NCBI GenBank assembly: GCA_037176885.1
Contig: JAWWNJ010000077.1
Coordinates: 372,001-436,000, forward strand
Direction of reading: 5' to 3'
Source: Favolaschia claudopus
Lineage: Eukaryota; Basidiomycota; Agaricomycetes; Agaricales; Mycenaceae
DNA length: 64,000 nt
Shown here in pieces: positions 26,353 to 48,943 of the stretch; position 1 is the stretch's first letter, and the number at the start of each line of letters is the position of its first letter. The notes beneath the pieces were generated by a model, which saw only the letters and a list, made by a program, of their open reading frames with translations, was not told the origin of the DNA and searched no databases. The position numbers and the translations under genes were made by a program.

Positions 26353-28053
26353 TCACCTTGATGAGAGTTTTGAGAAAACGATGATGCGTCGAGCGAATGT
26401 ATACACCCGAAAGCCATGGGGACCGAGTTCTACAGCGCGATCCCAGTGGCAAAGATACGCGGGCGATCGTTTGCTTGGGATTCCACAGATTTTGGGCGAC
26501 GGAGGATTAGAGCCTACATTCACCCACAGAATAAATACAGGCCGGCTTCGACACGGAGTCTCACTAATACTGACCTTGCCCTGAGGATATCGGCTGGACG
26601 CGTATGCTATGGCCATGCTTGGAGTAGTGAACACACACCAGAGGCGGACTACAAGACATGATTATGAGACGGCGTTTAGAAGCAAAGCAAAATCAATTAA
26701 TATCACTCACCCACCTCACCATCATTATCTTTCGCCGTGGTCAGTAGCACCACTCCAGCGCTGGGATCTGGGTTGGTAGGGCTCCGGTTCGGTACTGAAA
26801 AGCACGTTTTTTTCAGAGTGAGTTACGGGCGTGTAAATGATTGTATGTATTGTTGCTTACACCAAAATTCTTCGGTGAGCACACGTTGCAGAATTGCGTG
26901 AACATCGACGTCTTCCTCTTCCTCCTCCTCAGCAGAGGAAGCAGAGGAAGGAGAAGCAGAGTTGAGCGCGTCTACGATGGCGCGCGCCAAGTTTGCGCGG
27001 ACAATATATTCGCCTGCACCTAAAATACGCGTTACCAACGATTTTCACTGCATGTGTGACAGCCCTACCCGAAACGCTACACGCTATCCCGAACTTTGCA
27101 CGTTTACGAGTTCGTTCCAAAACGACACCCTCGCCTTCGGCCTCGACGTTGGAAGGCGCCCGCGCCCAACACCCAGCGCCGAACACAGCCGCTTCCCCCA
27201 CGCGTCCGGGGTGCTTGAGGAGGATTCCGCCACTGGAAACACCGCATGCAATCGAGCCTGAGTTGGCAGCAGCAGATGTGAAGGCAACTGCGCCGACGGT
27301 GTCTTGCAGTGACTCCAGTTCCATATCATCATGCTCTGTAGAGCTTTCGGTGTTGGCGGCAGATATTCCCGCCAGCCGAGATTTCCATGATTCCCATGTC
27401 TTCGTTGCGCGCGATGTGATGAGGGTTTCTGGAGGGACGAGCAATTCGGCTTTTATATCGGGTGGGAGCTGCTCGGCGAAAAGGCGCGCTCCGTGCGACA
27501 CGAGAGTGAGAGGCGGTATTCGGCCAAGTGGGTCGGGAATACGGGCGTGTTCGAGGATAGCGCGAGCGAGTCGGATGGGGTTCTTAATTCCTAAGGTCAC
27601 TCATTCAATTAGGTGTTGATGAATGAAGATGGATACAGACAAACCAGAAACAGCACCGATGCTCCCAAAGTCGCCTGTACGGCCATCCATGATGGAGGCG
27701 TCGCATTCAACGGTGCCAGAGAGAGTCAGATTCGAGCCATGACCTACGCAACTGAGCAATTATTCAAGCTTGATCGAACGTCAGTTTCTCGACCAACCTG
27801 CATTGAGGAGCGGACAGTTCTCCAAATATGTAATTGCGTGTTCTACGAAGTCTAGAGCCGTCGGAAAATTGGTACCAGCAGCAGAGATACGAGCAAGAGT
27901 TTCGGTGCATGCGCTGGAGAGTAACTATAGATTTTGACGCGGAAATTTGGAGATATGAACTGACAGCTGCAAAGCCTGCTTCACTTCGGGTTCAGAGTTC
28001 TTGCTGTGAAGCCCTGCGCCGCCATGTACAATTACATACGCGGTGGTGTTCAT
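26353..28053 (-). CDS. TASP1: Threonine aspartase 1 (Taspase 1), Ntn-hydrolase protease
   Basis: Endopeptidase of the L-asparaginase-type Ntn-hydrolase fold that cuts after aspartate in Q-[FILV]-D-G sites; in animals it processes MLL and TFIIA. The start is MNTTAYVIVHGGAGLHS. Next are GHGSNLTLSGTVECDASIMD and GRTGDFGSIGAVSGIKNPIR, which follow human Taspase 1 rather than ordinary asparaginases. The autocleavage and catalytic site is QDTVGAVA, with the nucleophilic threonine coded at 27298-27300. Then SSGGILLKHPGRVGEAAVFG and AGEYIVRANLARAIVDAL. A polar loop before the active threonine matches the Taspase-specific insertion. Late exons give LWCVFTTPSMAIAYAS; the extreme C-terminus (26353-26500) is the least certain splice. 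It is 101 bases from the divergent TFB4 gene. Confidence 0.88.
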
Positions 28054-28154
28054 CAGGATATCATGAGTTTGCGCATGTTTACCAGCGCGTTTCTCGACGC
28101 GTTCACGGTCCAGGGCCAGAACTGAGTTGAGCTCTTCTTCTTGGAATATATAGC

Positions 28155-29649
28155 ATGGACGAAGACACCAAAGCATCACATCTGTCTGTCGTAGTCGACT
28201 TTTCTCCCACTTACTGGGATCTCTCAGCACGCGACCCTCCAGAAAATGACTTCCCTCTCTCGTTGACCGCATTTCTGTCTCAGTTCCTCGCTTTTCTCAA
28301 CACGCACATTGCATGCAGAGATGAGAACACTTTAGCGGTATTTGGGGCTTTTCCGGGCAAGAGGTGCGCGCGGCTTATTGGCGTTTTTCGCTTGAGTAAT
28401 TCAAGGCTCGAGTAGCGTATTGCTATACTCATCGACGGACCCGGTATCGCCTTCTACCGAGGCAAGCATGAATGCAAACGCGTATCCACCGTTCCAGGTT
28501 GTGGATTCTACAATTGCTCAGCGTGTCATGAAAGAGTTGGATGAATTGGAACAGCGAGAGGACGAGGAAGAAGGTCAGTGCTATTCAATGAATATCATTT
28601 CATTTCTGTGCTCACATCACCAGCCCCCTCGGCACTTGTTGGTGCATTGGCAAAGGCACTTTGCTGTGAGATGCGGTCGTTCTCATTGCAGATGACCAGC
28701 TCACATCAAGTGCTATCACCGCAGATGTAAACCGAATAACCCTGCCTTCGAGCGCAAACTCCAAGACGATGGCCAATGGGTTTCACCCGGGCGTCCTCCC
28801 CGATCCACGCATCTTGATTCTCTCTGTCAGCCCCGACCTCGCGACGTCCTACATTCCCATCATGAATTCCATCTTTTCTGCGCAGAAGCTTGTACGTCGT
28901 CGTCCTGCACGCTGCCTTTCCGTGATTCGCTAACGCCGAGCGGCCCGTGCATAAAGAAAGCGACCATCGACGTCTGCCAGATCTACGGTCCCAATACAGT
29001 GTTCTTGCAGCAGGCGGCGCATCTCACGGGAGGGTCATACATCTTCCTCGAACGACGGGACGCCCTGCTCCAGTATCTAATTGTGCGTCTTCTCCTTCTA
29101 GACACCTCGTGTATGGAAGCCAACGGATCCTCCGCATTCAACCAGATGTCCTTTTTGCCCCCGCCGTCGGTACGAAGAACGTTGTCTGTACCAACGCAGG
29201 AGCAAGTCGACTTCCGCGCGGCTTGTTTCTGCCATAAGAATATCGTCGACATTGGATTTGTGTGTTCGGTGTGCCTTTCGAGTAAGTCGTCGATGACGTA
29301 CAGCTTGTCCGTTAATGGACTAAACGCGCGGGACGCAGTTTTCTGTCAGCCGCTGGCCGTGTGTACAACATGCCGGTGCGTATTGTATAGACTACGAGAG
29401 CCGAGTAGAGTAGTGCTTACCAGGTGTTCTAGGACGAAATTCCCGATAAAAACTCTGCAGCGACTCAACGCCGCGCGGCCGCTTCTGGCGACGGCGAACT
29501 CGAATGGGCGGACCTCGAGCCAAAACCTGGGGGTCGGCAATGACAGTGCGGTTGATGGCCCATCAGATCAGATCACAGCCACCGCGCAATCCGTCGAAAC
29601 CTTCCTCTCGCCGTCTTCCAGCACCTCGCACCTCCCTGCACTCAACTAG
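28155..29649 (+). CDS. TFB4: TFIIH subunit TFB4 (p34)
   Basis: Core TFIIH subunit for RNA polymerase II initiation and nucleotide excision repair; it pairs with the Ssl1/p44 subunit. The von Willebrand A-like N-terminal fold begins MDEDTKASHLSVVVDFSPTY and continues with AFLSQFLAFLNTHIACR. The middle shows GVLPDPRILILSVSPDLATS, ATIDVCQIYGPNTVFLQQAA and HLTGGSYIFLERRDALLQYL, all typical. The C-terminal zinc-binding element is CFCHKNIVDIGFVCSVCLS followed by FCQPLAVCTTC. A variable tail ends at 29649. Several short introns are visible, including one just after the second CxxC zinc pair. The frame resumes in the expected phase each time. Confidence 0.92.
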
Positions 29650-47683: not shown

Positions 47684-47912
47684 CATTCAGGCGATTCAGA
47701 TATGTGTATGTATGTACAGTACAACTCAGGTGCTATGCGGGGAGGGAGATGTTTGCGATGTAGTAAATAATTATTTTGTAAGACTTTCCGTACTGCTAAA
47801 GCAGCGGAAACATAACAGAAATGGAGCACAGACAAGCAAGGCAGAGCAGGCAGTAGAGTCCGGTCGTGAAGTTCCACGACGTGCATTCTAGGATAGGTCA
47901 ACAGCTCGATCA

Positions 47913-48943
47913 CTACACCCAGTCGAACTCGCTATTTTGAACTTTAGTGCATGTCCTAGGGAAGCGCGCAAGCACTCACCCAGTACACCTCGAGAAGAGG
48001 TAGTCCTTCCCGTTAGCGTGTATCATGCCGTCCTTAAGGATACACTTCCATTTGCTCTTCACGCGAGCAACCTTGTGGGCGAAATCAATTAGACACATAA
48101 TTTCATCTTGGCTTTGCCGGGACGCACCTTGTCGTAGGTACAGAATACGATATCCGTGTTGGCACCAGCACCATCCTCAAGGTCCTCATCCTCCGTGTCC
48201 GAGTCATCCAAATCGCTGTTGATAGCCTCCGAGTCAGCCGGAGCTGCGGAAGACGAGGCTTGCGGCTGAGGCAGAGAAGGATGCGACGCCCTCGGTGCGT
48301 ATGACGCCGGAGGAGGGGTAGCCGAATCGTCAGAGTCGTCCGACGGGCCGTCGACCTGCGGGATGGTAGGTCTTCCCGGCTGCGGACCTGAGGGGAAAGA
48401 GATGACGCTCGTCTGACCACCCAGATTGGGTCGGGGTGGAACGCCGTTCAGCTTGGGCCCAGGGAGAGGTGGTAAGGTGTAGTTCGCGTTGTTCAGCATG
48501 TATCGGCTGTCGACTGGCTCCGTCTTGACCTGTTGCTGAGATGACTGCGACTGCGCTACTTGGGGAGGCGGAGGGTAGGGATTGTGCACGGCAGCATATT
48601 GTGGCATCATTGGCATAGAATGGGAGGGGAAGTGGGGCGCTGGGTTTGGAGGGTCGAACTCCGCTACTCGAGACGCAATCACCTTGTCCTCCCATTTCTG
48701 AATTTCCATTAAATTGAGGAAAAATCAGGATAAATTTACGGAGGGCCAAAAAAAAGCCTACGAACCCGCTGCAGGTCCTGTAGTACTTCTTCTGAGACAC
48801 CGTACTCTTCGAATTCGTGCTTAATAGAGCCCATAACATCGTCTATGACAGCCCGATAGATAGACGGCTCCAGGGGAAGTGTTACCCGACTGTACTACTC
48901 AAACGATTATCGGTGAGTAGCTCACCACAATCTTATTGGACAT
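47913..48943 (-). CDS. TOA1: TFIIA large (alpha/beta) subunit, TOA1
   Basis: General transcription factor subunit that stabilises TBP on promoter DNA. The N-terminal four-helix-bundle region is MSNKIVYSR then PSIYRAVIDDVMGSIKHEFE and EYGVSEEVLQDLQ, spliced to KWEDKVIASRVAEFDP. A long Pro/Gln-rich linker follows. It carries IPQVDGPSDDSDDS (QVDG coded at 48347-48358), a full match to the Taspase 1 consensus Q-[FILV]-D-G-x-x-D. Then an acidic stretch (SDLDDSDTEDEDLEDG) and the C-terminal beta-barrel: ANTDIVFCTYDKV, ARVKSKWKCILKDGMIHANG, KDYLFSRCTGEFDWV. Four introns. The order site - acidic - barrel is that of animal TFIIA alpha/beta. Confidence 0.93.

What the first reader, a model, noticed from the sequence alone, without database searches (positions are those of the whole stretch)
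26353..48943. Taspase 1 and a TFIIA large subunit with a perfect Taspase 1 cleavage site in the same fungal window
Seen: TASP1 at 26.4-28.1 kb keeps the Asp-Thr autocleavage/catalytic site (QDTVGAVA) and Taspase-specific blocks. TOA1 at 47.9-48.9 kb contains QVDGPSDD (48335-48358), which fits the published consensus Q-[FILV]-D-G-x-x-D. The site sits just before the acidic region and C-terminal barrel, as in animal TFIIA alpha/beta. Known: animal Taspase 1 cuts TFIIA at QVDG; baker's yeast has no Taspase 1 and its TOA1 is not known to be cut. Inferred: this basidiomycete processes TFIIA by Taspase 1, so the axis would predate animals or has been kept in this fungal branch. I am not aware of a description in fungi.
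Basis: partly seen in the sequence, partly recalled or inferred. Interest (0 to 1): 0.85.

Follow-up and report, generated by a model that had tools for sequence, protein, structure and literature searches.

The report
Taspase-1 and its TFIIA target, fungal
A mushroom genome carries, close together, the protease that in animals cuts the general transcription factor TFIIA and a TFIIA gene with the matching cut site; the site is kept in most of the fungal TFIIA proteins examined and appears to have evolved together with the protease, which suggests that this cutting step is older than animals.

Summary
Both genes are intact, on the minus strand, in Favolaschia claudopus. My spliced models equal the deposited proteins letter for letter: TASP1 26430-28053 (408 aa) and TOA1 47913-48943 (266 aa). 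TASP1 is Taspase 1-like by profile (314 bits to human TASP1, 170 to the best other asparaginase). QVDG is the only Q[FILV]DG in the six frames of the window.

Of 120 listed close TOA1 relatives, 120 keep Q-x-D-G: 92 QVDG, 13 QLDG, 9 QTDG, 6 QADG. Of 118 further, mostly distant, fungal TOA1 proteins, 113 have QxDG and 72 have it at least twice. Yeast Toa1 has none and is reported uncut.

New evidence: where TOA1 changed P2 from V/L to A/T, TASP1 departs from consensus at His16 or Thr365 in 7 of 8 sequences, against 0 of 41 where P2 is V/L. Tree-aware nulls reach such a score in 55 to 0 of 3000 runs, depending on the conservation cut-off.

Best reading: TASP1 cuts TOA1 in these fungi. Cleavage is not shown.

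The parts
26430..28053 (-). TASP1 orthologue, 8 exons: 27965-28053, 27798-27913, 27645-27743, 27069-27590, 26861-27019, 26711-26794, 26575-26648, 26430-26513; 408 aa
   Evidence: spliced translation identical to P0121; Pfam Asparaginase_2 1.7e-50; best PDB match human Threonine aspartase 1
27298..27303 (-). Asp198-Thr199 of TASP1: predicted autocleavage bond and nucleophile (human Asp233-Thr234)
   Evidence: Asp-Thr in 119 of 120 fungal rows, one row gapped
47913..48943 (-). TOA1, TFIIA alpha/beta large subunit, 5 exons: 48926-48943, 48766-48867, 48128-48697, 47980-48071, 47913-47931; 266 aa
   Evidence: identical to P0001; Pfam TFIIA 5.8e-59; human and yeast TFIIA large subunits in PDB
48335..48358 (-). 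QVDGPSDD, predicted Taspase cleavage site; cut after Asp156 would give 156-aa alpha and 110-aa beta chains
28155..29646 (+). Probable TFB4 (TFIIH subunit) gene, divergent from TASP1 with 101 bp between the two ATGs; neighbour, not part of the axis. Start codon assigned by me from a recalled resemblance, introns not modelled
   Evidence: frame 28696-29646 matches Pfam Tfb4 1.8e-27; ATG position and gap

Best explanation
Favolaschia claudopus TASP1 is a Taspase 1 orthologue. It would mature by cutting itself at Asp198-Thr199, and Thr199 would then cut TOA1 after Asp156 in IPQVD|GPSDD, a site in the linker between the conserved N- and C-terminal TFIIA domains. This would give alpha and beta chains like those of animal TFIIA. 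Shown here: gene identity, catalytic residues, site conservation, and covariation of the site's P2 residue with conserved TASP1 residues. Inferred: autocleavage, cleavage of TOA1 in the cell, and its consequence for TFIIA.
For: (1) TASP1 profile (58 fungal sequences): 314 bits to human TASP1, 170 to the best other asparaginase. Catalytic Asp-Thr, SSGG, K258, R262 and GxGC are each in at least 118 of 120 listed fungal proteins. (2) QxDG in 120 of 120 close TOA1 relatives. On a 40-sequence alignment the mean frequency of the commonest character is 0.93 over residues 152-159 and 0.61 over linker 56-150. (3) QxDG, anywhere in the protein, in 113 of 118 further fungal TOA1 proteins, including Dimargaris, Coemansia, Rhizopus, Phycomyces and many Pezizomycotina; 82 of 118 have Q[FILV]DG. 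(4) Yeast Toa1 has no QxDG and PMC4513858 states that it is not processed (passage). (5) Covariation: TOA1 P2 = A/T goes with departures at TASP1 His16 or Thr365 in 7 of 8 sequences against 0 of 38 (0 of 41 with three rows first left out) for P2 = V/L. Label permutations: 0 of 5000 by species, 39 of 20000 with one sequence per clade. Divergence-weighted 5 of 5000. Tree-aware 8 of 4000; over conservation cut-offs of 70, 80, 85, 88 and 90%: 55, 30, 16, 5 and 0 of 3000.
Against: No cleavage data. Human Taspase 1 needs Asp at P3' or P4' and is impaired by Glu (PMC3102056, passages); only 14 of 120 close relatives meet this, though Favolaschia does. QTDG and QADG are outside the animal P2 consensus I saw. 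Position 265 is Glu in 117 of 120 fungal proteins (human Gln; E. coli isoaspartyl peptidase Asp). Another linker block, HPSLPQP, is as conserved as the site (0.98), so conservation alone does not prove cleavage. The covarying positions were chosen after scanning 408 columns, with 5-6 independent changes. Strength depends on the cut-off: at 70-85% conservation the best pair becomes 323+365 (8 of 8 against 4 of 41) and the tree null is reached in up to 55 of 3000. By clade the best single column is weak (709 of 20000). Cyathus, one of the 8, shows no departure (N-terminus missing in its model). At positions 11 and 369, 2 of 38 V/L rows also depart. Dacryopinax and Geosiphon TOA1 have no site and their TASP1 status is unknown.
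Confidence: 0.82

Rival explanations
1. QxDG in fungal TOA1 is a conserved short docking or phosphorylation motif, not a cleavage site; TASP1 has other substrates.
For: Another linker block (HPSLPQP) is equally conserved without being a Taspase motif. Ser-rich, casein-kinase-2-like [ST]..[DE] patterns follow the site in 95 of 120 proteins.
Against: The conserved letters are exactly the Taspase core Q, D, G. P2 covaries with TASP1 residues. Yeast, reported uncut, lacks the motif.
Confidence: 0.11
2. The fungal protein acts mainly as a type 2 asparaginase or isoaspartyl aminopeptidase and does not cut proteins in trans.
For: Sources name many of these proteins asparaginase or nucleophile aminohydrolase. 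Glu at position 265 could in principle bind a free alpha-amino group, as Asp does at this position in E. coli isoaspartyl peptidase (letters; the role is recalled).
Against: Profile scores favour TASP1 over asparaginases by 144 bits, with alignment to human residues 43-399. SSGG is here where E. coli isoaspartyl peptidase has STGG.
Confidence: 0.05
3. The covariation is an accident of few lineages; TASP1 still cuts TOA1, but P2 changes are neutral to it.
For: Only 5-6 independent changes; positions found after a scan; clade-level single-column test weak (709 of 20000); tree null reached in up to 55 of 3000 at a loose cut-off.
Against: A/T species have fewer other departures than V/L species (mean 1.75 against 3.08). 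In 6 of the 8 A/T sequences departures come in pairs: 11+365 (3), 16+369 (2), 16+365 (1).
Confidence: 0.25

Closest known systems
Animal Taspase 1 cleavage of TFIIA alpha-beta at QVDG (human, Drosophila; predicted in C. elegans at QMDG)
   Same: Taspase 1 homologue with Asp-Thr autocleavage site; QVDG in the TFIIA linker before the acidic region and C-terminal domain. Animal facts from passages of PMC5668323 and PMC5940137
   Different: Kingdom; P5-P4 Ile-Pro in 117 and P2' Pro in 119 of 120 close relatives; Ser at P3' and mostly Glu or Ser at P4'; QTDG and QADG variants; Glu at human position 265; at least two QxDG in 72 of 118 further fungal TOA1 proteins
Saccharomyces cerevisiae Toa1
   Same: Same TFIIA N- and C-terminal domains
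   Different: No QxDG; reported not processed (PMC4513858, passage)
Type 2 asparaginases / isoaspartyl peptidases (E. coli EcAIII and others)
   Same: Family PF01112 and catalytic Thr
   Different: STGG and GRVGDSP in EcAIII, SSGG and GRVGEAA here; much lower profile score

Membership tests
Taspase 1 (threonine aspartase 1) | Type 2 asparaginase domain | tested here: met
   PF01112, 172 bits, cut-off 27
Taspase 1 (threonine aspartase 1) | Closer to TASP1 than to asparaginases | tested here: met
   314 against 170 bits; single sequence 3e-46 against 3e-23; no tree against asparaginases built
Taspase 1 (threonine aspartase 1) | Asp-Thr autocleavage site and conserved active-site residues | tested here: met
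   Asp198-Thr199; 119 of 120 listed relatives, one gapped
Taspase 1 (threonine aspartase 1) | Autoproteolysis into alpha and beta chains | not testable with these tools
   needs protein
Taspase 1 (threonine aspartase 1) | Endoproteolysis in trans after Asp in Q-x-D-G | not testable with these tools
   needs an assay; covariation is indirect support
Taspase-cleaved TFIIA large subunit | TFIIA alpha/beta N- and C-terminal domains | tested here: met
   PF03153, 201.6 bits; PDB matches
Taspase-cleaved TFIIA large subunit | Q[FILV]DG in the linker before the acidic region | tested here: met
   residues 154-157
Taspase-cleaved TFIIA large subunit | Asp at P3' or P4' | tested here: met
   met in Favolaschia (P4' Asp) but in only 14 of 120 listed relatives
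Taspase-cleaved TFIIA large subunit | Site absent where TASP1 is absent | tested here: inconclusive
   yeast Toa1 lacks it, its lack of TASP1 is recalled; Dacryopinax and Geosiphon TOA1 lack it, TASP1 status unknown
Taspase-cleaved TFIIA large subunit | Two fragments in cells | not testable with these tools
   needs immunoblot or proteomics

The most novel reading that the evidence does not exclude
TFIIA is the ancestral Taspase 1 substrate, already cut in the common ancestor of animals and fungi. In mushrooms protease and site still coevolve, with residues 11/16 and 365/369 of TASP1 forming or shaping the P2 pocket and the acid supplied partly by downstream serines. Many Pezizomycotina carry two sites about 77 residues apart, so a middle piece may be cut out.
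Probability: 0.5. Interest if true: 0.82.

Novelty: new member of a known kind. Interest (0 to 1): 0.7.

Why it matters
The role of TFIIA cleavage in animals is unsettled, because uncut TFIIA is also active (PMC5668323 and PMC4513858, passages). If fungi cut TFIIA with the same protease, TFIIA may be the original Taspase 1 substrate. The question could then be tested by gene removal and site mutation in laboratory fungi. Natural P2 variants with matching TASP1 changes also give a ready-made specificity experiment. I found no description of Taspase and TFIIA in fungi in the held library. Ten paper searches were made: nine carried a Taspase term (59 and 61 asked for only part of their terms and listed mostly unrelated papers) and one Favolaschia. 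I read passages of six of the listed papers and part 1 of 2 of one more; the rest I saw as listings only. Most subscription papers are not held, among them Zhou 2006.

Tried and rejected
Considered and rejected: chance occurrence of QVDG; pseudogene (intact models identical to deposited proteins); generic asparaginase; general divergence as the cause of the covariation. A nuclear localisation signal in fungal TASP1: a basic cluster lies in an insert of 11 of 108 proteins where the insert could be found, and the eight examples printed are Favolaschia and Mycena; not general. Genome-wide search for other Taspase substrates and a second haplotype: not answered. Structure prediction: switched off.

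Rows left out: for covariation I first used 46 of 120 listed TASP1 proteins, those matched by species, or in five cases by genus, to a TOA1. The genus-level matches were Pisolithus thermaeus, Scleroderma citrinum, Lentinula guzmanii, Boletus edulis and Termitomyces. Left out by oversight: M. chlorophos and second sequences of M. sanguinolenta and M. venus; one search adds them (none departs). Mycena sp. CBHHK59/15 was left out because it has a QVDG and a QTDG copy; its TASP1 does not depart. Other genus-level matches (Trametes, other Amanita, other Mycena) were not used; none departs at 16 or 365. The 88% conservation cut-off was my choice; varies it. The tree null places six gains on clades of at most six tips. 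Only the best 120 hits of each protein search are listed (786, 580 and 2278 found). One search used the last QxDG of each protein and miscounted five acidic-region QEDG; one search corrects this.
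Full report
Identity. The window is from Favolaschia claudopus (Mycenaceae): both spliced proteins match proteins listed for that species at 100% over 100%. The published genome is 265 Mb with 86.8% of BUSCO genes identified as duplicated (PMC10905254, part 1 of 2 of the text); I did not check a second copy.

TASP1. Eight exons, minus strand 28053-26430. Pfam gives Asparaginase_2. Against PDB sequences the single protein scores 3e-46 to human Threonine aspartase 1 and 3e-23 to the next family. 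A profile of 58 fungal relatives gives 314 and 170 bits. Over 120 listed fungal relatives (of 580 found) the Asp-Thr pair is kept in 119 (one gap), Ser251 and Ser252 each in 119, Lys258 in 119, Arg262 in 119. Position 265 is Glu in 117, where human has Gln and the E. coli isoaspartyl peptidase Asp.

TOA1. Five exons, minus strand 48943-47913; Pfam TFIIA. The site IPQVDGPSDD lies between the N-terminal domain and the acidic region. In 120 listed relatives (of 786 found) the core is QVDG 92, QLDG 13, QTDG 9, QADG 6. IP precedes it in 117 and Pro follows Gly in 119. P3' is Ser in 116. P4' is Glu in 55, Ser in 47, Asp in 14. The human rule (Asp at P3' or P4', Glu impairs; PMC3102056, passages) is met by 14 of 120. 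A [ST]..[DE] pattern follows in 95 of 120, so phosphoserine might stand in for Asp; this is a guess.

Breadth. A third search with a hybrid C-terminal domain found 2278 proteins; 120 are listed, 118 of them new. QxDG occurs somewhere in 113 of 118; 72 have two or more, most often 76-78 residues apart (41 of 72); 82 have Q[FILV]DG; Asp is at P3' or P4' in 145 of 186 sites. QMDG, common here, is within the Drosophila consensus and is the C. elegans TFIIA site (PMC5940137, passages). Without QxDG: Dacryopinax, Geosiphon and three unnamed proteins, one of which has KFDG. Yeast Toa1 has none, and PMC4513858 says it is not processed (passage). For Ascomycota TASP1 I have only a table row, in a list of putative secreted proteases, naming Threonine aspartase 1 as best Swiss-Prot match in Pseudogymnoascus destructans (PMC5810475, passage). 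I could not score TASP1 presence outside Agaricomycetes.

Covariation. I compared TASP1 of 8 sequences whose species or genus has QTDG or QADG with 38 whose P2 is V or L. Among 408 columns the strongest single signals lie at Thr365, at residue 246 and at His16; 365 and 16 are near-invariant overall (109 and 114 of 120). Departures at 16 or 365: Pleurotus, Hymenopellis, Jaapia, Crucibulum, two Pisolithus, Scleroderma (7 of 8; Cyathus lacks the N-terminus in its model and has Thr365), and 0 of 38. Tests over all pairs of columns conserved in at least 88% of 120: 0 of 5000 label permutations by species; 39 of 20000 with one sequence per clade (5 against 19, where 365+369 ties with 16+365); best single column 709 of 20000 by clade. 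The A/T species are otherwise less divergent (1.75 against 3.08 other departures); divergence-weighted 5 of 5000. A tree without columns 11, 16, 365 and 369 gives 6 changes of the P2 label and 5 of the TASP1 departure; a null placing 6 gains on branches reaches the observed score in 8 of 4000.

Robustness. With three rows added (0 of 41) and cut-offs of 70, 80, 85, 88 and 90%, the tree null is reached in 55, 30, 16, 5 and 0 of 3000. At 70-85% the best pair is 323+365 (8 of 8 against 4 of 41), not 16+365. By clade, 16+365 stays best at 70, 80, 85 and 90% and permutations reach it in 28, 16, 12 and 3 of 5000. So the signal holds at every cut-off tried, but its strength, and the identity of the second residue, depend on the cut-off. 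It remains the strongest indirect evidence that TOA1 is a substrate. Positions 10-12 are the HGG/HAG block that in human asparaginase lines the active site (recalled).

Linkage. TASP1 and TOA1 are about 20 kb apart here. In 7 species both contigs exceed 0.5 Mb and differ. The species are related, so this shows ancestral linkage, not selection for it.

Verdict. TASP1 most likely cuts TOA1 in this fungus (0.82). Cleavage, its timing and its effect are inferred.

Noticed in passing
window 26430-48943: TASP1 and TOA1 share a contig in 23 of 42 species listed for both, against about 2.5 expected at 35 Mb; ancestral linkage of protease and substrate.
   Followed up: partly
window 28053-28155: TASP1 and the probable TFIIH subunit gene TFB4 are divergent with 101 bp between start codons, suggesting a shared promoter.
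   Followed up: no
window 34442-38855 and 42226-43509: Frames of a CHD1-type chromatin remodeller and of splicing factor Slu7 lie between TASP1 and TOA1.
   Followed up: no
P0241-P0358 (one search hits): 72 of 118 fungal TOA1 proteins have two or more QxDG, most often 76-78 residues apart, so a middle fragment could be released.
   Followed up: partly
P0312 Dacryopinax, P0313 Geosiphon: TOA1 without any QxDG; predicted to lack TASP1.
   Followed up: no
P0039, Mycena sp. CBHHK59/15: Second TOA1 copy with two QTDG sites 17 residues apart.
   Followed up: no
window 7777-8700: One open frame matches both Allantoicase and Ureidoglycolate lyase, possibly a fused purine-degradation enzyme.
   Followed up: no
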